Origin: Hawksworthiomyces lignivorus
Lineage: Eukaryota; Ascomycota; Sordariomycetes; Ophiostomatales; Ophiostomataceae
Length of the DNA: 64,000 nt
Direction of reading: 5' to 3'
Assembly (NCBI GenBank): GCA_002917075.1
Contig: NTMA01000025.1
Location: forward strand, 394,778 to 458,777
The translations under genes were made by a program, and so were the position numbers. Shown piece after piece: positions 48,754 through 64,000 of this stretch. Under the pieces are notes generated by a model. It worked only from the letters and a program-made list of their open reading frames with translations, was not told the DNA's origin and did no database searches. The first letter of the stretch is position 1. Each line of letters opens with the position of its first letter.

Positions 48754-49596
48754 TCAATCATCCCAAAAGTCAGCACCGCCGTATTTGTTTCCGAGAAAAG
48801 CTTTGCCCTTCTCACCCACTTGTACGCCATCATATGTATGAGATGTTCCAACTGCCTTGCCTTTCTACTCAATGCTGAATGTGTCTCCAGTGTGGGCTTT
48901 TCCGTTAATCGTCACGTTCGAGTACTGATGACCGCCAACAGCTTCTCTTGTAGCTGCATAGAGCATATTGTCTACTCCCTGAGCAGTCCTTTCAATGAGC
49001 TTCAGGGCTTGGCTGTCTTGTATCTCGGCCACTTCCCGCTTAGCCAAAACTTTTTGGATTTGCGTTGCCGGGAAGAGCCTTTCAACGTTGTCGATGAGAG
49101 AGGTAATGCTTGAGATGAGCTCCATAAGCTCAGATCTATCGTGAAGAGCCCAACTTGTTGTCCTTAAGATACTCTTTGATTTTTGCCTCTTGGTTGCCAA
49201 AACTCTAATCTTGTTATTAAGCGACACAACTTCAGGGTCTGTATCACTGATTGGGGAGGTAGAAAGATCGTCATCGGTCTTTTCGTCGGGCCTATGCTTT
49301 TTCGAAATCTTCTCCGCGTCAGCGAAGAGAACAAGTATCTGAAACAAAGAATCCTTAGCGGTCTGAATTTTATCCAAAGTTGCATCAGGTCTGCCCAACT
49401 TAGGATCCTCGAAGATGTTAACAGCCTGGCCTCAGCGTGTGAGGCGAAGCTTTGTAAAGTTGAGAGACAACAAATTTGTTTGGTAGTCTCGTCTAAAATG
49501 GCGACCGAGTTGGATGTACTCGAAACAATCAACGCAAGTGGTGAAAATAGTAGCGATGCTGACAGCACCAGTGACAATACCAAACGGTTCGGCCAT
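48754..49596 (-). pseudogene. HET-s-like gene (HeLo domain plus two amyloid-type repeats) with two nonsense codons
   Basis: One continuous minus-strand frame of 281 codons, close to the length of HET-s family proteins. The start EPFGIVTGAVSIATIF and CVDCFEYIQLGRHF is the HeLo-domain N-terminus; KKH, TTSWALHDRSELMELI and IDNVERLFPATQIQKVL are later helices. After residue 220 come two repeats of HET-s-related amyloid type: R1 at 48868-48930 (Y-S-N-V pattern, ending G-D) and R2 at 48757-48840 (ending G-N-K-Y-G-G with a C-terminal FWDD). Two stops break the frame: TGA at codon 55 (49432-49434), where the family has tryptophan, and TAG at codon 244 (48865-48867), between R1 and R2. Each is one transition from a sense codon. 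Intact members form pores when their prion domain is triggered; this copy should not make a full-length protein. It is divergent from the exon at 49897. Confidence 0.82.
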
Positions 49597-49896
49597 GGTC
49601 CAAATGGATTATCCCTACAGAGGCTCTGGTATCTTATCTTATATAATTGGCAAAATGTGAGATATGTGCAGCATCTACTTGTGTTTTAAGTACATGCAAA
49701 TAATATATCACGTACACATACTATATAGGCGTACTCTTGATTTGGGAAGTGGGGTGGAGCGACAAGGCTGGACCAGTTGGGCCGTCATAAGAAGTGCCCC
49801 GCACAAGGTTCCACCTGAATCTCGCAGAGGTCTCACTCTTCGACTTTCTTATACTAGTGTTTGGTTTTGTACGAGAGTATACGCTCCAGTCTTAAG
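49597..49896. promoter_or_regulatory. Divergent promoter of the HET-s-like / amyloid-motif pair
   Basis: 300 bases between two opposite starts. Gene pairs of HET-S and its NLR activator are often arranged this way. No specific binding site recognised. Confidence 0.4.
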
Positions 49897-50005
49897 ATGT
49901 CTAATAATGAAAGTGAAGGCCTTACTTTAGGCGGAAAACAGTATCAACGCATCTTTGCTAATGGCGGCAAGAATCACTTCGGGGATTCGCACAACCACTA
50001 TCACC
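49897..50005 (+). pseudogene. First exon of a probable NLR-type activator, carrying an amyloid-type motif; rest lost
   Basis: ATG 49897 opens 36 codons of which residues 13-31 (GKQYQRIFANGGKNHFGDS) resemble R1 of the neighbouring HET-s-like gene: K/H-Q-Y, hydrophobic, A/I-N-G, then F/T-G-D. NLR proteins that trigger HET-S carry one such motif at the extreme N-terminus, often encoded in a short first exon. A donor-like GTAGGT follows at 50006, and from about 50014 the sequence is a GC-rich dispersed repeat. No NACHT, WD40 or other NLR domain is found downstream. Read as the stub of the partner gene; a chance short frame is the alternative. Confidence 0.45.
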
Positions 50006-50013
50006 GTAGGTCG

Positions 50014-50138
50014 TGTAAGAGGTCTGCTGGCGATGGGCACAGGAGAGACTGTCCTCCCCGGTCTCCCCGCTGGGCCCGTCAGTCTGATCTCTGGCCCTGG
50101 GCTCGCCCTGGGTCGCCCTCGGGGCCCTGGCCCATTAC
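50014..50138 (-). repeat. GC-rich repeat, left copy of an inverted pair
   Basis: Read on the minus strand this begins GTAATGGGCCAGGGCCCC and matches 52775-52855, then again a piece near 53039-53057 (CCAGCAGACC). The two copies face in opposite directions with 2.6 kb between them. GC content is far above the surroundings. Confidence 0.7.
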
Positions 50139-50455
50139 ACTAGTCCGGTCATTGGTTGTGAGTTGCAAGGGTGTCCAATTTTGTATGAGGCAGACTGTTG
50201 ATTCAGAGAGTCTAATCTGACTATGAGGTTGCACCCTCATTAATACATACGTGTAGATACAGTGTATATAGCACAGTTTTGACAGTGCGTATACAGTATG
50301 CGCTATAATACTAAGGCATTAATAACGCTGGGATTATTCCAAATTCTCAACAGAGGGCCTTACCCCTCACAGAACCCATATCTCTTAATACGGCAGGGGC
50401 AAGAATTGGTGTTGCCTTCAACTACGCCTGCGAGACTTTAACTAATGGGACTTTC
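50139..50455. other. Spacer upstream of the LanC-like gene
   Basis: 317 bases with no gene. It must contain the promoter of the LanC-like gene if that gene is expressed. Confidence 0.4.
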
Positions 50456-51601
50456 ATGGCTATCAATCCCTCCCAAGTACCTACAGCCGGCCAACGGTTT
50501 TTTGTGAATGAAGCGACGACTCAGCTTCGAGTCGAAGACCTGAAGGCATGCCTTATCCAATCAACTTCGCTGCTTATACAAGACTGTCCCCCAGCGCTGC
50601 CGTGGGCGTCAACTTTCCACGGCTCGATCTATCACGGATTTTTCACGGGGCCTACGTCTGTTGCCTACTTCTTCTGGATCCTTTCCACCAACCATGCCTG
50701 TCTTGAGATCGAGGGAAGGCGGCCAATAGATTGGTGCAAGGCGTATCTAGAGCTAGGGCAAGATGCCGTGCCTCCATTGCTCGACACCGGCTGCGGCGTG
50801 AGCAACGAGTACTTAGCTTCCAACGCCCTCAAAGCGTGCGTGTACCAGGACGAGAGCTTTGCAACCCGCGTCCTGGAGGCCTTCCGCAGTCTAGAGACGG
50901 ACCCAACTTGCTGCGAATGGCTATTTGGCCGTGCAGGTGCGCTTTACATTCTACGCGTGATACGACGATGGCTTCCTCACCTTACCACGGTCATTAATCC
51001 GGTCATCACGTCGCTGATCGAAGCGATGCTCGCCCAACAACCATGGCTCTGGAATACGCGGCAGTACTTGGGAGCCGTGCACGGCGACATTGGCATTGTG
51101 ACGCAGATCATCCTGAGCGACGCATCCGACGCACTCAAGTTGGAAAGCAAGCTCCTCGAGCTTTTGAAGCTACAGAGTGCAGAGGGAAACTGGCCAGTCA
51201 GAGAGGGTAAGGATGTCGGGCTTGTGCAGTTCTGCCACGGCGCGCCGGGCTTCGTCGTCTCTCTCCTAGCCATCAGGCCACACTTTCCGACGCTTCACAC
51301 GCAGATAGACGCAGCTGTCGCACTTGGCCGGAAGCTAATCTTTGAGAGGGGTCTCCTGACGAAGGAGCCCAATATTTGCCACGGCATCATGGGCAACGCC
51401 CTGGCACTGGATCTTCAGGAGCGGGAGCACTTCCTATGCCTTGCGACGCCGGAGAAAGTCAAGGAGGGTGTGGCGAACGGGATTTTCGAGAAAAGTTTGG
51501 ACCCTTTTGGACTGCTATGGGGGGAGGCGGGTAGGGCGTGGGCCTGGCTGGACACCTGGGAACGGGGCCAGGGTAAGGTCGTGCTTTACAACGACGTTTA
51601 G
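50456..51601 (+). CDS. Lanthionine synthetase C-like (LanC-like) protein
   Basis: Intronless, 381 aa, intact. The alpha,alpha-barrel fold of the LANC_like family is shown by its repeated GxxG turns: FHGSIYHGFFTGP, WLFGRAGALYIL, GAVHGDIGIVTQI, CHGAPGFVVSLL and CHGIMGNALAL. The zinc ligands of LanC enzymes are present as C260, C308 and H309 (CHG motifs); these sites bind zinc and activate thiols. Eukaryotic LanC-like proteins add glutathione to dehydrated residues in proteins; a lantibiotic role is not implied. Fungal copies are scattered. The gene stands inside the inverted GC-rich repeats, surrounded by broken ankyrin repeats and relic DNA, yet has kept its frame and GC-rich codons, so it may be a recent arrival or under selection. 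Start ATG 50456 is the first in frame. Confidence 0.88.
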   Translation: MAINPSQVPTAGQRFFVNEATTQLRVEDLKACLIQSTSLLIQDCPPALPWASTFHGSIYHGFFTGPTSVAYFFWILSTNHACLEIEGRRPIDWCKAYLELGQDAVPPLLDTGCGVSNEYLASNALKACVYQDESFATRVLEAFRSLETDPTCCEWLFGRAGALYILRVIRRWLPHLTTVINPVITSLIEAMLAQQPWLWNTRQYLGAVHGDIGIVTQIILSDASDALKLESKLLELLKLQSAEGNWPVREGKDVGLVQFCHGAPGFVVSLLAIRPHFPTLHTQIDAAVALGRKLIFERGLLTKEPNICHGIMGNALALDLQEREHFLCLATPEKVKEGVANGIFEKSLDPFGLLWGEAGRAWAWLDTWERGQGKVVLYNDV

Positions 51602-51773
51602 GGCTCCGGAATTGGCATACTAAGTCTCTGGCCTGCCAGTGTTAGATCCAGTATGTGGCGAACCGGCTTACAATCATGGTTGAAATCAGTAGTAGTCCTT
51701 GATCTATCGCCAAGTCTATTAAATCGTTGTAAGGCACTATAAAGACGGTCGAGATAATATTAAACATAGATTT

Positions 51774-52042
51774 CTAGCAATTGTATAACGGCCTCGTAGC
51801 CCTCCTCGGCGACCCGGTATAGCGGCGTCTTACTTCAGGTATCTTTCGCTTCAGTATTGGCGCCCTTATCGAGTAGTAGTTGTACAACGGCCTCGTGGCC
51901 CTTCTCGGCAGCCCGGTATAGCGGCGTCCCGCCGCTGCTACCTCCCGTTTCAATATCAGCGTTTTTATTAAGTAGTCGTTGTACGACGGCTTCGTAGCCC
52001 TTCTCGGCGGCCCGGCACAGCGGCGTCTCGCCGCTGCCACGT
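51774..52042 (-). pseudogene. Ankyrin-repeat relic
   Basis: Minus-strand translation gives three ankyrin repeats: GETPLCRAAEKGYEAVVQRL, GGTPLYRAAEKGHEAVVQLL and KTPLYRVAEEGYEAVIQLL, each followed by LDKGAN-type turns. A TGA lies between the second and third. No start or other domain is attached. Fungal NLRs frequently end in such near-identical ankyrin repeats, so it could be debris of an NLR C-terminus (inference). Confidence 0.7.
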
Positions 52043-52243
52043 CCTACGTTATATTATGAAATAGGACGAGAGGACCTGAAAAAGATACCTAACAAGGCGG
52101 TAAAAACGTGGTAGAACGAATATACTGGTATAAGAGCGGGGACAGCACCCAGCGGGAGCTAGCACCAATCATATACCAGAATAGAAAAGCATACCACAAC
52201 GATTTAGATAGTAGAATATTGTACCAGGAGGATTACGTAACCA
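52043..52243. other. Spacer, no gene seen
   Basis: Short relic DNA between the ankyrin fragment and the hairpin cluster. Confidence 0.35.
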
Positions 52244-52417
52244 AACATCAGTTGCGAACTGATGTTCATGGCTGATGTTAGGATGAGGTTCATAAACAAA
52301 CATCAGTCGGGAACTGATGCACCCGACTGATGTATAAATGATGTTGTTTATTTATATAATAGCACGCCCTCTATTTAGATAACTTAGATAGTTACGGTAA
52401 CGATTAGTCGTTACCGT
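52244..52417. repeat. Cluster of perfect hairpins
   Basis: Three perfect inverted repeats in 174 bases: 52244-52266 (10-bp arms AACATCAGTT, 3-base loop), 52301-52332 (11-bp arms CATCAGTCGGG, 10-base loop) and 52394-52417 (10-bp arms ACGGTAACGA, 4-base loop). The first two share the CATCAG/CTGATG core. Confidence 0.75.
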
Positions 52418-52552
52418 TTGTTTGAATTAACTAAGGTATTTACCACTTTGACTCTGTAATGTCTTTATTGTATATATTAATATACTTAGTTAATTTTTAA
52501 AAAATATAAATATATAAGCTTGATCACTTCATATAAAATGTTCTGGTACCTT

Positions 52553-52750
52553 TATAACACGTCAATATTGACACCCTTGTCGAGTAGCAATTATACGACA
52601 GCCTCGTGGCCCTCCTCGGCGGCCTAGTACAATGGCGCCCGGTCGCTGCCACCTCCCACGTCGATATTGGCGCCATTATCTAGCAGTAGTTGCACGACGG
52701 CCTCGTGGCCCTTCTTGGCGGCCCGGTATAACGACGTCCCGGTTTAGATA
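52553..52750 (-). pseudogene. Ankyrin-repeat relic, second fragment
   Basis: Two repeats on the minus strand: GTSLYRAAKKGHEAVVQLLL with DNGANIDVGGGSD, then APLY, a stop, AAEEGHEAVV, a stop, LLLDKGVNIDV. The stops (TAG, TAA) are explained by transitions from arginine or glutamine codons. Probably the same original gene as the fragment at 51774-52042, split by the hairpin-bearing DNA. Confidence 0.65.
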
Positions 52751-52774
52751 TCTCCGGCTTTTACTTCAATATTT

Positions 52775-53060
52775 GTAATGTGCCAGGGCCCCAAGGATGG
52801 CCCAGGGCGAGCCCAGGGCCAGAGAGCAGACCGATGAGATCTAGCGGGGACACCGGGGGAGGGAGCAGTCGATCGCCCGGGCGACTTACCGGCCCACCGG
52901 CCCACTTGCCCCTGATGCCCTTTTTTTCAACCAGGAGCTTCGCTCCTGGGAGTCGAAGGAGAGTCTTCTCTCTTCTGTATCTTTAGTCTTTCGTTTAATC
53001 AGGCTTATACTATTGCCTCAGGGCTCTTCTGTGCTCCTTGCCAGCAGACCCCTTACATGA
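52775..53060 (+). repeat. GC-rich repeat, right copy of the inverted pair
   Basis: Starts GTAATGTGCCAGGGCCCC and matches the reverse complement of 50014-50138 up to about 52875; the matching block CCAGCAGACCCCTTAC resumes at about 53040 after roughly 110 extra bases that contain a hairpin (CCAGGAGC/GCTCCTGG near 52931). Confidence 0.65.
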
Positions 53061-53088
53061 AACAACCTAACTAAGAAACTTCTTTTCG

Positions 53089-53116
53089 CATCAGGGGTTG
53101 TCAACAACCCCTGATG
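53089..53116. repeat. Perfect hairpin, 12-bp arms
   Basis: CATCAGGGGTTG, loop TCAA, CAACCCCTGATG. Shares the CATCAG/CTGATG core with the hairpins at 52244-52332. Confidence 0.75.
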
Positions 53117-53823
53117 TCTCCGGGGCATCCCTTCTATCTACAACTCATTACTCTATCATGTCTTAAATACGTAAGTAGCCGTAATCATACTAAACTCCTT
53201 ATTAAAACGCAAATATACTTCCAGCAAAGGATACAACCAGCGAGAGTAACCGGTCGGAAACTATTCACATTAGAGATTGCCCTCTGTAGAAATGTAGCTA
53301 GAAGACTTTTTTACAAGAAATATGTTACGATAGGCGTGAGGGTTTACTAACTGTATCAACAATCCAAAAATATCGTCAATATCAACACCACATACTGATA
53401 TTCCCTCACACTAACGTATATCACTTGCCTCAGAGGCCCTCCGACATATACGTTGTGACAAAATAAATCTATTAACCCACACTGTTTAAAGATAGTCCTC
53501 AAAGAAAGACTCGGATTACAAACGAAAGGATAGAACTTTTAGTATTACATATACGGATCTTTTCCCATAGATGCAACTTGGAATAGAGTTAAGTCTTATA
53601 ATATTCATTTTAGAAAGTATTTAAAAAGTCCGCATACTGAGCTCGTTTTTGATGCTATATTCATAGCTTATTCTGTTCTCCTTAAAAATACTTCAAGTAC
53701 CTTCATAATCGTTTCACAGGTATTCGCGCCTACCATTTTCTAGCAAGAAAATTGCAAGAATTAGGAACATGAAAGCACACCCTCTAAGCAGGCTAGAACA
53801 GGGACTGCACAGGCACACGTCTC
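53117..53823. other. AT-rich DNA without a recognisable gene
   Basis: Low-GC stretch with only short open frames; consistent with RIP-degraded relic sequence. Confidence 0.4.
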
Positions 53824-53910
53824 AAAGAGGAAATTTTCCGGTAAGCTTTTTCGTGTGGGACAATGGGCTGTTATCCCACACGAAAACGCTCTTGGAAAAT
53901 TTTCCTCTTT
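53824..53910. repeat. Long imperfect inverted repeat
   Basis: Arms of about 37 bases (53824-53860 and 53874-53910) around a 13-base loop. Outer (AAAGAGGAAA with TTTTCC) and inner (TTTTCGTGTGGGA) parts pair, a central 7-base stretch does not. Could form a stable hairpin, transcribed or not. The inner GTGGGA core recalls the palindrome inside the TGTTGAGCTAC repeat. Confidence 0.7.
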
Positions 53911-54068
53911 TGGATCCTGGCACTGGCGCTAAGCACCTCTGCACAGGCTGCGCTTCGTGCCTGGCCATTATTGCGCCGGGGGGAAAAGAAGGGAAGGGGG
54001 GGAGGGTAAGTATACTCGACTAGCAGCTACAAAGGCGTTTCTCTTACACATTTCTATTAATATGGTGT

Positions 54069-54120
54069 TATTGAGCTTTAGCACCTCACCGTGCTAAAGG
54101 GTAACAGATCACAGCATTTG
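54069..54120 (+). repeat. Dispersed repeat (TGTTGAGCTAC family), diverged 5' part
   Basis: Resembles the first about 50 bases of the family (TTGAGC...CACCTCACCG...AACAG.TCACAGCA) with several changes. Confidence 0.5.
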
Positions 54121-54739
54121 ACAACTTGATCCTTTTGATTTGAATGGAAAATTAAACAACACTGTAACACTCACGTGCTACGTGTACTAGTACATTTTAT
54201 ATCCTGGCCACTCTCATGTGCCAGCACTATTTATATACCAGCACTTCTTATGTACCAGCCATTCCTCGTGCTGTCCACTTTTTGTCAGCGCAGTAGTGGA
54301 GCATGCATTGGTTGATTGATTCTGAGCGTAATATCTGGCCTACGGATATGTAATTGCCTCACTATTTAACTATACGGGAGTTGATGCCTTAGGCTCAACT
54401 ATTCCTTGAATCTGATTGGCTGAATTCCACAGGCCTATTGTGGCAGGGGCGAAAAAGGTGTGTGAGTCTATTGGACTACCTGAACCATACTGGGCCACTG
54501 CCTGGGCTAAAAGAGCTCTGCTGGGTCACGTGAGGGGCCCGCAACACTGCCCCGTAGCCCAGGCGTCTAAGCTAGAAGTACTAAGTACATGAAAAATAGC
54601 TGACAAAACAAGTAAAACAGAGGTATCTTTGACCGTATATAGCAACTTAAGGTTGACATCGTATATAGCACCTTATCGTGAATTCAATAGCGAAAATAAA
54701 ATCATAAAAAGCATCAAATCTTGAGAAAAACCATAGTCC
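54121..54739. other. Transposon-derived spacer, no gene seen
   Basis: Lies downstream (minus-strand sense) of the copia relic, with short direct repeats such as CGTATATAGCA twice near 54636-54670; probably the element's 3' untranslated part. Confidence 0.4.
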
Positions 54740-55737
54740 GACAGGGAGCTCCTACGTTGGCACGCGTTTCAGGCCGAGAAGGTCAACGAATCTGCCATGG
54801 AGCTCCCGTTTCAAAGGCTTGGTAAAGCCGTCAGCGGCCATTTGATCCGTAGGGATATGTTCAAGCACAAACGTGTTGTCAGAAACCTGTTCAATAATCT
54901 ATTTGTAGCGAATATCAAGATGTCTAACGCGTGCCTTTTTGTGAGGGTTAAGGCAGATTGTACGTGCGTTTTGACTGTCGGTAAAGAGCAGAAGAGACGG
55001 AGGTTGCGTCGTTCCGAAGTCGTGGAGGATATCTCCAACCTATTGTAAGGCTTTGGTCGTAGGAGTGAGGTTCACGAACTCTGTCTCCGTGGTGGAGAGG
55101 ATGACGAAGATTTGCCTCTTTGATTTCCACAAGACTAGACCTTTTATAACGAAAATCACGTATCCATCTATAGATCTCCGTAACGAAAGGACATCGACAA
55201 ATGTCGTATCGTTGAACGTCTTTAGACGAAGATCATTCGCGAATTCAATATCGTTAAGGACTACGTAGTAGTCAATGATAACGATGATATATCTCATAAG
55301 GTGTTTAGTAAAAGTCCAATGTTCTTGGACAAGGCCTTTATTGGTCTCATAAAGTCTGTTGTAAATATAAACAACGTTAGAATATGTATGAACGACGAGA
55401 AAATTGACGAATTCGATCATTTTGAGATATTCAGTCTGACGAGTGAGATTTGGGGTCCAAATAATAGAGAATTCAAGACCATTAAACCAAAAAGTTTTGA
55501 TGTCTTTCAGATTACTGTAACCAAGTTTTTCAAACATTTTTCGGACGTACGTTTGTTGGTCCAAATATATCTTATATTAATCTCTATCACGATAAATATT
55601 AAGGTCCAAAAAGAATTTCGTAGGACTAATGTACTTGATGGAGAATTCTTTGTCAAGAAAAACACTCACACGATAAACTTCTGTCAAGATCGAACCAATC
55701 ACCAACATATCGTCAACGTACATAAGAATAAAGATAC
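54740..55737 (-). pseudogene. Ty1/copia RT/RNase H relic
   Basis: Minus-strand frames spell the 3' half of copia pol. It starts at the catalytic box ILMYVDDMLVIGS (about 55700-55740), continues EFSIKYISPTKFF, MFEKLGYSN, WTFTKHLMRY, DYYVV, SIDGYVIF, GLVLWKSKRQIFVILSTTET (RNase H) and, in other frames, a terminal part below 55040. Many substitutions and stops. The 5' half of the element is missing: the sequence switches directly to the dispersed repeat at 55738. Confidence 0.8.
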
Positions 55738-56008
55738 TATTGAGCTACAACACCTCACCGCACTATAGAACAACAGGTCACAACAGAATAAGCACTAATT
55801 GACTGAGGCCTTGTGGGGCATACAAGGCCTATAAGGCCCTATAATATAGTCTAATTTGACACCAAACTTTTAAATTCAATAACTAACCAACCAGTATAGC
55901 TATAGGGACCAATGTGGGACTGTTGAGAAGAGAATTTTCTACTTCTCACAGTCCCACCGTCGTCTTGGTACTCAGAACTTTGGAAAAGGCCAGAGTGCTC
56001 ACGAAATG
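55738..56008 (+). repeat. Dispersed repeat (TGTTGAGCTAC family), truncated by the Ty3 element
   Basis: About 270 bases matching the reverse complement of 41316-41585, including the GTGGGACTGT palindrome. First bases read TATTGAG (G to A change). The copy stops exactly at the LTR start at 56009. Confidence 0.75.
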
Positions 56009-56264
56009 TGTTAGGGAGTACGGTGAATTAGGTGAGAAAGCACAGAGAATAGAGGTAGATTCTTAACAGAGGCTAGCTGAGAGATTATTCACAAGACTGA
56101 ACCTTAAGGTTCCAAGTTTCAATTAGGGTCTCCAGGCGACTCGAGCGCTTTTTATGACAGTTTCGTAGGGGGCTCGCGGCCACTGCTCGCGGTCCCCGCA
56201 CTTGTCCCTCTCGTGCTTCATCACGTGCTCTTTGGCTGCTCGGTCTTGTGGTTGTCCCATAACA
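56009..56264 (-). repeat. LTR (3' LTR in element sense)
   Basis: 256 bases. Differs from the other LTR at about ten places, all transitions. Confidence 0.9.
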
Positions 56265-56281
56265 ACTATCCCTCCCCCGAA
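56265..56281 (-). other. Polypurine tract of the Ty3/gypsy element
   Basis: Purine-rich GGGGGAGGGATAG on the minus strand immediately inside the 3' LTR, the usual primer for plus-strand DNA synthesis; it fixes element orientation. Confidence 0.7.
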
Positions 56282-58449
56282 GCGATTCGTCCTCGAATTG
56301 TCGGCGAGGTTGGGTTTGTACGATGATTTGGTCGTGAATAGGGGGTGTGTTCAGCTCGATTCACTGACGATGAACTCTTGAGTCGTCCCAATGAATAAGA
56401 ATGAATAACGTTGACCTAACCGAATTAGACAATATCAAAGACCTTCAATACATTTTGGTATATATTCGACGTTCATTCGAAATTATCTCGACAATGAATT
56501 ATGAGGTCAGTCAATTGATATTCGTTGACTGTTTTAAGGTCACGGGATCGACTCTTACTCGACGTATAAATATCTCGTTCCCTTTTCGTTTTTGAAGTTT
56601 TCTTTCTTCCTTTTTTTTTTTCAAACCTCTCCCTCTTATTCCGGTAAGTTTTTAGAACACGTTTTCTGATGTGTTTTCTGTCTCGCGGTATTGTCGTTAA
56701 CTCATCGGTCTTGACTCGACGTAATCGTATTGATCCGTTATTTTTCTTAACACAATTCTCATTATATTTCAGAGTCTACTCCGACAAGGTCGTGAAATAT
56801 GTTCGATCTTGACGCTTTTCCCGCTTCTGTTGCGATTCTCAACATTAGTTCTTTTGTTTCGTCTGATGTCGGTACGTCTACGGATGGAGGTTAGTAGACT
56901 CTCGCGACCGGGTCGGACGAAGACGAAGACCTAATACAAGTTGACGACGTTGACGACAATGACTCCAACAATGACGAAAAGGTCACAAGTAACGATCCGT
57001 CCCCGACACTCACTCGATCTTATCCCGACACAACCTCTTATATACCTTGTTTTCGTTTCGTAATTAACCAAACCATTATTACGAATAGATTTCGCGTACA
57101 ATTCGAATATGTGTACCAAAACATAACTCGATGTCAAATCTATATTAATTCAAAGAAGAAAGCCTCGTATCACATTGTAAGTTCTCGTTCTCTTCTCGAT
57201 TAATGATCATTATTAAATCGAAGTTATTAATATCTTCTAATATATAAGTCTTATTTTTGGTGATTTTGTAAGTCTTTTGACCGTTTTGATTAATGTTAAT
57301 ACATTTTCCGAAACGTATTCGACTTTATCTCGAAATACACGTTTGACGTACAAGAAACTGACTCAGACTTTCGAACTCGTTAAAAACGAACATCACAAGA
57401 CTTTATTGATTGATAAATCGTCTCCGACTTATCATAATCTCGTATTGTAGTCGTATCAAATCCGCGAATTACGTACGTCTTACGATAATAGAATGTCCGA
57501 TGATATAATAAGTAATTTCCTTTTCTTTTCTTTTTTCGTTTATATGTCGACTATATATCGTTACTAACTCATTCTTAGTATATGTCTTCTTCCTTTCTTA
57601 TTCCGAAGAACCTCTATTTTGTTACACTTGACTCTACACATCGACAATATATAAAGAACATACATTCAATCGTTGGTCGAACCTTTGTCGACAACAAGTC
57701 GAAACGAACTTGACTTCGAACTATCGTGACTAAACCTTTCTCTTACATTTCATAGATGTTCGTAGATTATTCGGTCGTAAATCGTGAAAGATTTGTTCTC
57801 ACAATTAGTTTTGACCTCAAATAATGAACTAATACAATATTTTGATTTGATACACCCTTTTGTCGAACTTGTCTCGCGTCCTTCTCGAGCTCATGTGTTT
57901 AGTTTAATGTTTACACTTACAAAATACTCTCTTCACGCACCTCTTAGTATCGTGTCGAACTGAAATCGTCACGATACATAATTATTATAATTGAATCAAT
58001 CAAGTTTGGTTTTAGACCACTCACTCTTCCTTTTCCGAGTTCTCTTCTCGTAAACGTCGATAGTATCTCGTACGTGAATCATATCTTCTTCGAAGACTTA
58101 CTAGTTGTATTCCACAGACCAATTAGTCCATTTGATTAAATAGTAAATGTCTCTCTCGTGGACTTTCTTGTCCTTCACTTTTTCTACCTCTCATTCGTCC
58201 TCGTCTTCGAATTGGGACATCGGTAGAAACTCGATAGTATTTCGACCACGATACGGTTCGAGTAACGAAATAAAGAAGACATTGTGTAGTCTACTATATT
58301 GATTTGATAACGTCAATCGATACGTCTGAGTACCGATTCGTTCTAAAACTCTGAACGATCCGATAAACCGTGATACTAACTTCTTCTATAACACTTTCAA
58401 TCTTAGATTTTGAATGAATAATTGAACTAACTCACCTATTTGGTATTCT

Positions 58450-59423
58450 TTTGATAAATGTTTTTGGTTATAGTACTTTGTCTACGATTTTTGCGCGTTT
58501 TACCAACGAGTCTTCAACGACTCTCTCAGATTCTTCAACTTCTCTAAACGAATTTGTACTTCTGACAATATCTGTCCTTCCTCCCGAAAAAAGTCGTCCT
58601 CGACTTTAGTACGAAATTCAGACGAGTAACTCATAAATACCTCGAACGATAAAACGTCTATAATTGCGTTTACGACGTTGTTATATATAAATTGTACAAT
58701 AGATAACAAGTTAGACCAATTTGATTGTTTTATATTATAGAAACATCTTAAATAATATTCTAGAACTTGATTGACGCGTTTCGTCTACTCATCGGTTTGT
58801 GAATAAAACGTCGTCGATAACCGTTTCTTGATTCTATTGTAATAACATAAATCTGACCAAAACTGACTTGTGAAAACTGGTCCTCTATCATTCATAATGT
58901 CTTTAGGTGGACCGTATTCAAGTTCTATGTTTTCATAAAACAATTTTGTTAATTACGAAAAGTTAATCGTCGACGACACGAAGTATACTCGTATCATCTT
59001 CGTATATCTGTCGACAATGACCAAAATACTATCTACCACATTACTCCACCAATACATCTCTAATAGAACAACGATGAAATCCATCGTTATTTGTTCCCAA
59101 AGTCGCTTAAGAATAAACAATTGGTTCAATTGACTATAAGACTTATGTCTCTTCGACTTGACTATTTAACATATATGACACGTTGCGACGTATTCACATA
59201 CGTCTCAGACTAGACCCTCCCAATAGAATTTCCGTTCTATCAACGTCTGAGTTCGATGTCTATCGAAATAACTCGTTAATAAATCGTCATAGTATAACGA
59301 TAATATCTCTCGTCTTAGAGACTCTTCAAAAGACACGAATAGTCGTCCTTTATAACGAAACAGTTCGTCTAACCCTAACCTCCAAGATTTCGGGGCCTCA
59401 CCCGAATCGAGTCGTACTCGCAT
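58450..59423 (-). pseudogene. Ty3/gypsy integrase relic
   Basis: Zinc-binding HHCC-like part at 59205-59423 (LTSYFDRHRTQTLIERKFYW) and the C-terminal part at 58500-58709 (VQFIYNNVVNAIIDVLSFEV). The catalytic core between them is not in a readable frame. Confidence 0.65.
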
Positions 59424-60099
59424 CCGAGTCGTCCAAAAGTCTATTGTCTACAAAGCTTCAATAAATTCTCCCAAGAACTCTACTACCATAAGAGCCTTTG
59501 GTTTTTCTTATACTACAACCTCTTGAGCCAACGCGTCTGATACTAATTGTTCACAATACTCTTTTCATTGACGTTTCATCCGTGAAACGTTCCCGAGTCG
59601 TTCGACGAACTCTCTAGAATAGTGGGCTCGGACCTATTGAATTCAACACGACTCTTTGGCTTGCCCTATCGTGAGTGACTTGTGATTTACCAAGACTATT
59701 TCTTCGTCTCGAGTTTTGTTCGTACGAATTACGACTGTATCTCACGTTGAGAGATCTTGACTTTCCGACTCCATCTATCTTTACGTACCTTGAGACTTGT
59801 TCATACACGATACTATTAACACTTCTTAAATTATTGTCATCTTTTAACGCAAACCAAAGAATAAATCTATATCTCCCTCACCCTCTTTCGTCTCGTACTC
59901 CGACTATCTCGAGAGACCATCGACGAGGTTTCGTTTCCCAACTCAATGTTTTATCTCAAAGTTATAAGGTACTAAATACATACACCATCTTGTTTGTCTC
60001 CCATTCAATTTGGAGATCTTCATAAATGTCTACAAGTTTAAATAATCCGAGATCACCTCGATTAAATATCGGCTCCCCTCTAAATAATACCTCCAATAC

Positions 60100-61232
60100 T
60101 TAAAGAATTCCACTATAACCATCATTTTTTGATTCGACGTATCATAATTCAACTCTACGTCTTCAAATTTTCTTGACTAAAAGACAACAAGATACCAAAC
60201 GTCTTCGTCGTCTAATTGTGACAAAATCCCTACCATAACAAATACTGACGCGTCGATCTCGAGTCATATCGGTCTCGACGAATCAAAATGTCTTAACAAC
60301 AGAACTTCAATGAACGTCTTCTTTAGTCGATTAAAAGCCTTTTCTTAATCTGAGTCCCACTTCAGAAAACCGCTCTTTTTACCATTCTTCGATCCTTTCA
60401 TCAACTCGGTGAGAGAGACACAAATCACAAAGTAGTCGTATATGAATCGTCTGTAAAAGTTACAAAACTCTATAAAAACTTGAACGTCTCTGAAAGTCGT
60501 TAGTCGTTTCCAACACAATATTATATCAACTCTCGATCGATTCATACTGATTCCCAGATCCGAGAGTATATAACCTAAAAATTCTACTTGATTCTTGTAA
60601 AACTCACATTTATCTAAATTAACATACAACTCAATTACTCGTAGTCTTTCGAACACATCTCGTATACGAGTCGTATACTTCTCTCTGATTTCCGAAAAGA
60701 TTAGGACATCGTCCATAAATACGACATAGGTGATGTCCACTAATTCTCTCAAGACTTAGTGAATGTAATTTTGAAACGTCGCCGAAATGTTGATGAACTC
60801 AAACGACAAAACCGTGTACTCGTAGTGACCGTATCGAGTACGAAACGTTGTCTTCCACTCATCGTCTTCTTTTATACGGATACGATGATAAGTATCCTTG
60901 ATATCCAGTTTAGTGAATCATTTTGTTTTCGTGATCCGATCCAGGATTTCCGAAATCAAGAGAAGTACGTATCGATTCTTAATCGTCACACGATTCAATC
61001 TTCGATAATCAACATACAACCTTAAACTATCATTCTTCTTTGGTACAAAAAGGATAAGTACTTCCATTAGACTTTTGAATGATCGAATTCTATCACTTAC
61101 GATATTCTCGTCTAAATATTGACATAAAGTCGCAAACTCCTTTTCCGACAATAAATAAATTATGTTATATAAAAATTGTTTTCTTGACAAAAGATCAATC
61201 GAATAATCCGTCTCTTTTCGTTTCGATAACAC
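60100..61232 (-). pseudogene. Ty3/gypsy reverse transcriptase and RNase H relic
   Basis: RT fingers/palm at 60918-61232 (LILFVPKKNDSLRLYVDYRR, NRVTIKNRY) and the catalytic region at 60345-60752 (TYVVFMDDVLIF, VNLDKCEFYKNQVEFLGYIL). An RNase H-like stretch continues to about 60100. Stops and frame changes separate the pieces. Confidence 0.8.
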
Positions 61233-62218
61233 ACTAACCTAAGTGATATCAAAAACATCCTTGAAATCTTCCAACTCTATCGAAATCTGAAATCGACTAA
61301 ATCTCGACTTCGATTCGTCGTCGAACGAGAATTCCTCTCGATCTCCCTCAACACACAAAGTGTCTACTTCCAAAGTTATCACCACGACGTATATTTTCGT
61401 CACATTTCTGATTTCTCGAAGAAATCTCGTGATTAATACGACCTCGATTTTGACTTAAAATACTTCGAACTACCACTAATTTCTCCAAGACACCAAATAT
61501 AATTACAAGTTCTTGATCGTAACTTGTGAAAATATTACGAGACTTACGTCTAATCCTTCAGATCGATCAATTACGATATATTCTCGTACGACACGACGTC
61601 GAGTCTCTCTAGAGTCGACCAAAGTAATAAGGATTTTTCACACTCTATATGTGGAAATCCCTTCGTCATTGACTATCTCGAGAGAGAGAAGACTTCTATC
61701 TGACTCTTGTAGGACCCATGTTCGTATATATTAAATCCCTATTAGATCCGTCTCTACGCCAATGTCTAAGTCCCCGATTGTCTCGACATCGTATCGGTTG
61801 TGAATCGTAATCGTAGTATTTAATCGGATTTCCACCTCTAAATATATTCGTACTACAGAGTCGGAGTTCTCTCTAAATATTATTCGTTTTTTGATTCCGT
61901 GACATTTTGGACAACTGTTGAATTCGGACAGTCCTTTGAGTGATATCCTGACTTATGACACTTGAAGTAACGATTCTCCTCTATGTCGACCGAGTCTGAC
62001 AAAAGTCTCGAAAATGGAACTCTCTCTAACTCTCTTTGTTGTCGGTTATACCCCGACCTTCCGAATCGATCATTTCTTCGGAGACGGTAAGAGACCGTCG
62101 AATCGCCCCGTTTCGGGTCCTTATCGTCTCTGGGTCGTCTGTTTTTCGAGTCGTTGGACTATATTTGTTTCTTGTCCTTTTATCCTTCGTCGTACCGACT
62201 CCGTTTCCGTTTCTACGA

Positions 62219-62896
62219 TTAGGTTTCCTTCCAAATACGTTCTGTTCGATCGAATATATCACGTTTCGAGGTCGAGTCGGTAATGCCATGTATAATTACT
62301 ACAAATTTTAGATCTTGATGTAAACCTAAATAAAACACGTCTCTACGAAATTGCTCAAATAATTCCACGATTTTCGCTTCTAAGATGTTCAAATAGATAT
62401 TAAAATCAATCGAACTTTGATCGATTAATTGTCGAGTTTTAAGATATTTCGTTATAACCGTTAACGTAATACTACCGACTTTCGACGATAGAGAGATAAT
62501 CCATTCTTCGAACAACTCCCAATCATTCTCAACGTATTTCCTCTCCGACTCGTTAAGTTGACTCCGAATAAATTGATCTCATCGTTATCTACATCGAATA
62601 TTCATATTTGTCAATGTTTTTATAATTTTCACACGATCGCGACGATATCGAATCGAGACCGCTTCAAACATCAGTCTCATCGATAAAATCCAATCATCGC
62701 GTTCCTGAAATGTAAATGTCTCTAGGAACTTGTCCGATGAGTCGATAAACACGTCTTTTGTTTCCGAAGAAGAAGAACTTCGAACGTGTCGGTTACGTCT
62801 CGATATTCGATCACGTCTATCACGAATTAATCTCTCAAACCGGCTTTCCGTACTTGTCTGATCGTTCGATTCCTCCGATGAATCTTGTTGTCGCAT
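62219..62896 (-). pseudogene. Ty3/gypsy gag relic
   Basis: Two minus-strand frames (62585-62896, 62219-62515): an acidic/arginine-rich start, then FQERDDWILSMRLMFEAV and FNIYLNILEAKIVELFEQFR, a typical retrotransposon gag capsid pattern. Confidence 0.6.
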
Positions 62897-63208
62897 AACT
62901 CTTTCGAGTCGACGGACTTTCTAACACAAGTCGTTCAATTCTTACAACTAACTATACTGTTCACGAACCTCTTCTAATTGTAAATCGATTAATTACGAGT
63001 CGATTCGTACAAGACCCGTTGACGATTCCATTATCGAGATTAATTCGACAAAGTCTACCTCTTCCGACTATTGTCTCAACGACTCGCCTTCGACCACTTA
63101 TCGAGTCTCCGTCGTCTCTGTATCCCTCACGGTTCCACGAGACGCTCTACGCGTATCTGTCATATTCGTTGGCTTTCTCAGGTAATTCGGGGGTAGAAGG
63201 TTCAGAAT

Positions 63209-63464
63209 TGTTAGGGAGTACGGTGAATTAGGTGAAAAAACACAGAGAATAGAGGTAGATTCTTAACAGAGGTTAGTTGAGAGATTATTCACAAGACTGA
63301 ACCTTAAGGTTCCAAGTTTCAATTAGGGTCTCCAGGCGACTCGAGCGTTTTTTATGACAGTTTCGTAGGGGGCTCGCGGCCACTGCTCGCGGTCCCCGTA
63401 CTTGTCCCTCTCGTGCTTCATTACGTGCTCTTTGGCTGCTCGGCCCTGTGGTTGTTCCATAACA
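63209..63464 (-). repeat. LTR (5' LTR in element sense)
   Basis: 256 bases, about 96% identical by eye to 56009-56264. It carries the A or T state at most of the differing positions, so it looks the more strongly mutated copy. Confidence 0.9.
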
Positions 63465-64000
63465 TTAGTTTTTTATTGGTATTATTTCTATTAATATATT
63501 AGTATAATAGTTTTATTACGTTTATCATTTTCTTTTAAGGTTTTAATTTAAGTTTTTACGTTTTATTTTATAATATGATTTTTCTTTTTTAAGTTTTCGT
63601 TATAAAAATAATAAAAGATTGTATTTATTTCTTTTTGGTTAATTTTATTTAATAAAATATTTTTTCTTTTTTTAATATGTTTAATTGTATTACGAAATGT
63701 ATCGTTGATAATTTCGTTTAATGTCGAAAAACGATTTTAAAACTCGAAAATTTAAATTTCGAAAATATATTTTGTTTTTATTATATTTATTTGTTAAAAA
63801 ATTATATTTAGTTAATTGTATCGATTTCGAAGACGAAATATTATATTATTTACGTTCGTATAAGTATTAAATACGATGAAAAAGTGTTAAACCGGACACT
63901 GTATTGTTACGGTGGATCCTTGGACCTACTGTACACATAAACATTACTGTTATATAGGTTGAATTTTTCTGAGCAGGAAGGTATAACTTACTAGTTAGTA
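63465..64000. other. Very AT-rich tail, no gene
   Basis: Extremely low GC to about 63880, then ordinary sequence to the edge. Does not continue the dispersed repeat interrupted at 56008. Likely RIP-degraded relic DNA. Confidence 0.5.

What the first reader, a model, noticed from the sequence alone, without database searches (positions are those of the whole stretch)
48754..50005. Decayed HET-s / NLR-type prion signalling pair
A HET-s-like gene (HeLo domain plus two amyloid-type repeats) faces, across 300 bases, a short exon whose first 36 residues carry a related motif. In established HET-S/NWD2-type systems the NLR activator carries one such motif at its N-terminus, is encoded next to the effector, and templates its amyloid fold to start cell death. 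The layout and motifs here match that system, and both partners are broken. The effector's motifs (Y-x2-V, N-G, G-D/N) diverge from the textbook pair, so it may be a distinct motif family.
Basis: partly seen in the sequence, partly recalled or inferred. Interest (0 to 1): 0.85.

Follow-up and report, generated by a model that had tools for sequence, protein, structure and literature searches.

The report
Broken fungal HET-s cell-death gene pair
A fungal self-killing gene of the HET-s kind has been switched off by two stop signals, and beside it lies what looks like the cut-off first piece of the immune-receptor gene that would once have triggered it; this is a decayed example of a known system, not a new one.

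Summary
Minus strand 49596-48754 is a 280-codon HET-s-type gene: HeLo domain (Pfam E 1e-15 and 3e-23 on its two pieces), then two amyloid-type repeats. It has two in-frame stops and no length change; 46 of 71 protein relatives are 279-283 aa. Both repeats carry histidine at motif position 3, the published signature of HRAM3, so this is no new motif family. The facing 36-residue exon (49897-50005, +, 300 bases away) resembles the gene's own first repeat (score 50; 0 of 5000 shuffles; first of 2539 start-codon peptides), but a profile of relatives' repeats hardly supports it (3.0 bits; 305 of 20000 shuffles as good). No receptor follows: a short repetitive element (MITE) begins 8 bases past the exon, then an independent LanC-like gene; Pfam finds no nucleotide-binding, WD40 or TPR domain in 50143-64000. 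Four other HeLo loci of this genome face a receptor gene or its remains. Podospora's transposon-scarred nwd2 is a precedent. Best reading: a recently decayed HRAM3 effector/NLR pair; the receptor is inferred from motif and layout, as no relatives' DNA was at hand.

The parts
48754..49596 (-). HET-s-type effector pseudogene, 280 codons, two in-frame stops (49434-49432, 48867-48865), no frameshift
   Evidence: PF14479 on both HeLo pieces; PDB small s protein 2wvo E 6.9e-21 for the middle piece; of 71 protein hits 35 are exactly 280 aa and 46 are 279-283 aa
49437..49596 (-). N-terminal piece of the HeLo domain (profile positions 1-47)
   Evidence: Pfam E 1e-15
48868..49431 (-). Rest of the HeLo domain (profile positions 51-205), then repeat r1
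   Evidence: Pfam E 3.1e-23; r1 profile 43.0 bits
48757..48864 (-). Repeat r2 and aromatic/diglycine C-terminal tail
   Evidence: r2 profile 65.9 bits; weak match to the HET-s prion-domain chain 2kj3, E 0.076, tail only; no second match to it in this genome; a relatives' r2 string also finds C117 weakly, E 0.048
49597..49896 (.). 300-base intergenic stretch between the two divergent start codons
49897..50005 (+). Short first exon, 36 residues, with an r0-like motif; putative start of the lost NLR gene; candidate splice donor GTAGGT at 50006
   Evidence: score 50 to r1; rank 1 of 2539; profile support weak; the donor is read by eye
50014..50139 (+). MITE copy with internal deletion, TGTAAG...CATTACA, no 5-bp target duplication visible
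   Evidence: 46 matching pieces in own genome, some copies giving two pieces, so about 40 places; copy alignments and flanks
50456..51601 (+). Independent LanC-like gene; not part of the pair
   Evidence: PF05147 E 6.9e-20; similarity to the C153 paralogue begins exactly at this ATG
51752..52741 (-). Ankyrin-repeat remnants on the opposite strand, interrupted at about 52044-52561; not continuous with the exon
52774..53057 (-). Second MITE copy, full length, inverted, about 85% like the first over 85 bases

Best explanation
This is a decayed HET-S/NWD2-type amyloid signalling pair of the HRAM3 subclass. In the ancestral pair the receptor (NLR) sensed a trigger and clustered; its N-terminal r0 motif adopted the beta-solenoid amyloid fold and templated r1/r2 of the facing HeLo protein, whose HeLo domain then attacked the membrane and killed the cell (established for nwd2/het-S; inferred here). 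Now the effector gene is stopped before most of HeLo and again between r1 and r2. The receptor gene is cut down to its first exon, with a MITE 8 bases beyond it and an unrelated LanC-like gene next. The module is presumably inert. Shown: HeLo, r1 and r2 of HRAM3 type, two stops, head-to-head exon, exon resembling r1, no NLR domain found downstream. Inferred: that the exon was the start of an NLR, that its body was lost by a rearrangement at or near the MITE, and the killing mechanism.
For: HeLo in both pieces and structural relative HET-s 2wvo. Of 71 relatives I aligned 53; 52 show both repeats, P0058 lacks most of r1. Histidine at position 3 in 52/53 r1 and 50/53 r2, glycine at 19 in 51/53 and 53/53, fitting the published HRAM3 description. 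The exon resembles its own r1 (50; 0/5000) more than r1 resembles r2 (40) and ranks first of 2539 start peptides; its summed score against 53 relatives' r1 is reached by 7 of 1000 shuffles, against r2 by 13 of 1000. Four other HeLo loci of this genome are head-to-head with an NLR or its remains at 546-804 bases; the C117 pair, both frames open, is a positive control for r0-effector matching (r0 to r2 63, 0/3000). Podospora nwd2/het-S: divergent, 0.6 kb apart, nwd2 inactivated by a repa transposon scar in het-s strains (PMC4344463, passages).
Against: No NACHT, NB-ARC, WD40 or TPR in six frames of 50143-64000 at E up to 0.1. Profiles of relatives' repeats give the exon 3.0 bits (r1; 305 of 20000 shuffles as good) and 1.4 bits (r2; 1269 of 20000), below unrelated window frames. 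The exon does not match the window's r2, nor the r0 motifs of C117 and C107 (481 and 531 of 3000 shuffles reach the score), and it deviates from the motif (lysine at position 3, shortened arch). No copy elsewhere in the genome, no protein candidate. Relatives' neighbouring genes could not be examined.
Confidence: 0.75

Rival explanations
1. The effector is a real HRAM3 HET-s pseudogene, but the exon is a chance or unrelated reading frame and no NLR partner was ever here (57 of 155 HRAM HeLo genes in the 2015 survey had no NLR found next door).
For: No NLR body; profile scores of 3.0 and 1.4 bits; no protein candidate; adjacency found for 98 of 155 genes in PMC4518210.
Against: Score 50 to r1 at the expected place, strand and distance; 0 of 5000 shuffles; next best of 2539 start peptides 41; 4 of 6 other HeLo loci of this genome have the layout, 2 unresolved.
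Confidence: 0.2
2. The exon is the first exon of the LanC-like gene, making an amyloid-motif LanC effector interrupted by a MITE.
For: The LanC frame stays open upstream to 50315 and an AG lies before it.
Against: The C153 paralogue matches at 76% over 1161 bases starting exactly at the LanC ATG, with nothing above chance upstream (best 20 bases, E 1.4); the paralogue has a start codon at the same place.
Confidence: 0.02
3. The effector is still made, by stop readthrough or because the stops are assembly errors, so the locus is live.
For: Frame otherwise intact over 280 codons; only 4 of 61 near-invariant columns depart, and 9 of 53 relatives depart at as many or more.
Against: Two separate stops of two kinds, at columns identical in 53 of 53 and 52 of 53 relatives; no partner body left; HeLo loci C112, C145 and C107 of this genome are also broken.
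Confidence: 0.03

Closest known systems
HET-S/NWD2 of Podospora anserina (HRAM1)
   Same: HeLo plus two C-terminal repeats; facing divergently transcribed gene opening with one motif; in het-s strains nwd2 is a pseudogene with a transposon scar (PMC4344463, passages)
   Different: Motif subclass HRAM3 instead of HRAM1; no PF11558 match at E up to 1, the repeats being scanned in separate pieces; effector itself carries stops; receptor body absent, not merely scarred
HRAM3 subfamily of HET-s-related amyloid motifs (PMC4518210)
   Same: Histidine at position 3, core at 5, 8, 10, 16, 18, glycine at 19, in two repeats behind HeLo
   Different: Pseudogene; r1 arch two residues shorter, as in 51 of the 53 aligned relatives (P0028 is longer, P0058 lacks most of r1); facing motif has lysine at position 3
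HeLo/NB-ARC-TPR pair at C117 of the same genome
   Same: Head-to-head layout, r0-r1-r2 set
   Different: Both frames open, and HRAM1 (PF11558 E 4.3e-17)

Membership tests
HET-s-type effector | HeLo domain | tested here: met
   PF14479 E 1e-15 and 3.1e-23 on the two pieces; full profile 1-205
HET-s-type effector | Two C-terminal imperfect 21-residue repeats with hydrophobic core and G19 | tested here: met
   r1 and r2 profiles 43.0 and 65.9 bits; pattern as in the aligned relatives; r1 has T at position 18 and a shorter arch
HRAM3 | Histidine at motif position 3 | tested here: met
   Both repeats here; 52/53 and 50/53 relatives; definition from the text of PMC4518210; logos not seen
HRAM1 (canonical HET-s) | Pfam PF11558 match | tested here: not met
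   No match at E up to 1, repeats in separate pieces; the C117 protein of this genome does match; only 38 of 155 HRAM proteins in the 2015 survey matched it
HET-S/NWD2-type pair | Adjacent gene opening with one related motif (r0) | tested here: inconclusive
   Pairwise match to r1 significant; profile support weak
HET-S/NWD2-type pair | That gene encodes an NLR (NACHT/NB-ARC plus repeats) | tested here: not met
   None in 50143-64000, six frames; the ancestral state is not testable without relatives' DNA
HET-S/NWD2-type pair | Intact genes | tested here: not met
   Two stops in the effector, no receptor body; expression not testable
HET-S/NWD2-type pair | Amyloid templating and cell death | not testable with these tools
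   Needs expression of the motifs

The most novel reading that the evidence does not exclude
The receptor's first exon is still transcribed as a free motif: unspliced it reads on into and past the MITE as a 107-residue ORF (49897-50220). Such an orphan r0 would be an unregulated amyloid seed that switches on the facing effector, so loss of the effector by two stops would have been selected as an escape. That would make the order of decay (receptor first, effector second) a rule that can be tested across HeLo/NLR loci.
Probability: 0.06. Interest if true: 0.6.

Novelty: new member of a known kind. Interest (0 to 1): 0.3.

Why it matters
It adds one decayed HRAM3 locus to a well-described fungal immunity system and parallels the transposon-scarred nwd2 of Podospora. 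The more useful part is the set: this one genome holds five loci where a HeLo gene faces an NLR gene, its remains or (here) a motif exon; one has both frames open (C117) and others are decayed to different degrees, a natural series for asking which partner is lost first. It is not a new motif family or mechanism.

Tried and rejected
Exon as part of the LanC-like gene: rejected, the paralogue matches only from the LanC ATG. Ankyrin remnants as the lost receptor: wrong strand. A flip between the two inverted MITEs, which would turn the ankyrin remnants towards the exon, was weighed by comparing flanking 5-mers by eye: no swapped target duplication, and the copies are only about 85% alike, so I rejected it. 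RIP as cause of the stops: the effector gene shows no RIP marks (TpA/ApT 0.73, substrate index 1.27), whereas the ankyrin remnants do by both indices (1.28, 0.73) and the retroelement stretch by the substrate index only (0.66-0.76; TpA/ApT 0.89). Distinct motif family: rejected. Relatives' loci: none in viral contigs or genome contigs, collections in which little fungal DNA is expected. Exon homologues as NLR-sized or short proteins: no candidate shared three words, so nothing was scored. One paper search for HRAM, NLR, pseudogene, HeLo and amyloid together listed a single paper, PMC9815663; I make no claim that this locus type is unpublished.

Full report
What is there. The window lies at the end of contig C110 of a 43.7-Mb genome, read here as fungal from its gene families. 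On the minus strand, 49596-48754, one reading frame of 280 codons is interrupted by two in-frame stops and nothing else. Its two HeLo pieces hit Pfam PF14479 at E 1e-15 and 3.1e-23, and the middle piece hits the HET-s structure 2wvo at E 6.9e-21. A search with the 188-residue middle piece returned 71 proteins, all with HeLo in the table; the best is 67% identical. Of the 71, 35 are exactly 280 residues long and 46 are 279-283. Intact copies therefore exist elsewhere.

Which motif family. I aligned 53 of the 71 hits with the middle piece and read the C-termini. The 18 left out are 17 proteins of 122-240 residues and P0026, 314 residues. The family has r1 (GHxYxNVxIxGKAxTGD) and r2 (SHxYDGVxVxxxGKAxxGNKYGGKDFWDD); P0058 lacks most of r1. 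Histidine stands at motif position 3 in 52 of 53 r1 and 50 of 53 r2; glycine stands at position 19 in 51 and 53 of 53. In the text of PMC4518210 (abstract and parts 1-2 of 5 read) this position separates HRAM3 (H) from HRAM1 (N) and HRAM2 (Q). The sequence logos were not seen. PF11558, the canonical HET-s prion domain, does not match here, though r1 and r2 were scanned in separate pieces, and only 38 of the 155 HRAM proteins of that survey matched it. So the motif is HRAM3, not a new family. The window's r2 finds only itself in the genome; a string composed from relatives' r2 finds the window and, weakly, the HRAM1 protein at C117 (E 0.048).

How old is the break. At 61 columns conserved in at least 95% of relatives and readable in the window, the window departs at 4; the median relative departs at 1, and 9 of 53 depart at 4 or more. 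The two stops fall at columns that are identical in 53 of 53 and 52 of 53 relatives. There is no RIP mark in the gene. I read this as recent silencing of a gene that had been kept intact.

The facing exon. The ATG at 49897 opens a 36-residue stretch that ends before a candidate donor at 50006, read by eye. Against the window's own r1 it scores 50 (BLOSUM62, gap 8/1): 0 of 5000 and 1 of 3000 shuffles reach this. r1 and r2 themselves score 40. Among 2539 ATG-started peptides of at least 30 residues from 215,701 bases of this genome it ranks first and the next is 41; 16 of the 2555 peptides were dropped because they start in or beside the effector gene. In 9792 six-frame segments of 315,411 bases (overlapping loci counted more than once) the next score outside the two genes is 43. 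Of the 53 relatives, 36 r1 and 37 r2 reach shuffle p below 0.05, and the summed scores are reached by 7 and 13 of 1000 shuffles; the relatives are akin, so these are not independent tests. Against this: the relatives' r1 profile gives the exon 3.0 bits, 15th in the list of 1597 segments and behind unrelated frames, a score that 305 of 20000 shuffles reach; the r2 profile gives 1.4 bits, reached by 1269 of 20000. The window's r2 and the r0 motifs of C117 and C107 are not matched. No protein candidate came up, and the exon occurs once in the genome. I take it as a probable, not proven, r0 motif.

What follows the exon. A MITE starts at 50014; its sequence gives 46 matching pieces in the genome, about 40 places since some copies give two pieces. 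Several other copies show a 5-bp target duplication (for example L011, L012, L018, L022, L024); this copy shows none, although its main part is 98-99% identical to its nearest copies, and it has an internal deletion. That fits a rearrangement breakpoint at the MITE, but several other copies also lack a duplication, so it is only a hint. At 50456 begins a LanC-like gene whose paralogue on C153 matches from exactly that ATG. Six-frame Pfam scans of 50143-64000 at E up to 0.1 find LanC (+), ankyrin repeats (-) and retroelement domains (-), but no NACHT, NB-ARC, WD40 or TPR. The receptor body is not on this contig end.

The same layout elsewhere in this genome. Of the 8 HeLo places, two rows are one locus (C145) and one is the window, leaving 6 other loci. 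Four are head-to-head with an NLR or its remains: C117 (546 bases; HeLo with PF11558, NB-ARC-TPR receptor, both open), C107 (794 bases; effector frameshifted and internally deleted, NB-ARC-TPR receptor open), C106 (804 bases; HeLo without recognisable repeats, short first exon, then NACHT and WD40), C112 (591 bases; HeLo with a stop, similar first exon, WD40 remains). That the first exons of C106 and C112 are spliced to the receptor frames is inferred. C145 and C37 were not resolved. As a positive control, r0 of C117 matches its r2 at 63, 0 of 3000 shuffles.

Literature. PMC4344463 (passages) says nwd2 and het-S are divergently transcribed, 0.6 kb apart, and that nwd2 is a pseudogene with a repa transposon scar in het-s strains: nearly the same picture. 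PMC4518210 reports 98 of 155 HRAM HeLo genes beside an NLR with one N-terminal motif. PMC5485727 names an HRAM3 pair from Cladophialophora psammophila (passages). PMC9815663 describes an HRAM3-like NLR motif class (passages). PMC12258605 (passages) gave general background on NLR organisation.

Verdict. It is a decayed member of a known kind.

Noticed in passing
G000 C106:10500-16500 (L062) and C112:340000-348500 (L064): Two HeLo loci face short first exons with a shared NYDNV-type motif (score 68 to each other, 0 of 3000 shuffles); in C106 a NACHT and WD40 follow, in C112 only WD40 remains were found. The C106 HeLo protein shows no recognisable repeats; possibly another signalling motif.
   Followed up: partly
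G000 C107:406000-415500 (L065): HRAM1 pair with an open NB-ARC-TPR receptor but an effector that is frameshifted and internally deleted, HeLo joined directly to r2.
   Followed up: partly
window 50456-51601; G000 C153 (L067): Two LanC-like genes in this genome, 76% identical in DNA over 1161 bases.
   Followed up: partly
window 50014-50139 and 52774-53057: A MITE family (TGTAAGGGG...CATTACA, about 284 bases, 5-bp target duplication in several copies) with 46 matching pieces at about 40 places in the genome.
   Followed up: partly
window 51752-52741: RIP-marked ankyrin-repeat remnants (TpA/ApT 1.28, substrate index 0.73) interrupted by about 500 bases that hold a 53-base direct repeat with inner palindromes.
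   Followed up: no
window 55000-64000: Decayed copia-like and gypsy-like retroelement remnants on the minus strand; GC 0.33-0.46 per 500 bases, 0.21 in the last 500.
   Followed up: no
G000 C145 (L066:3958-4461): HeLo piece ending in two stretches that look like another repeat pair (YIRPIVYDQAHQINGDV and YVDPAARDNSTQINSNV).
   Followed up: no
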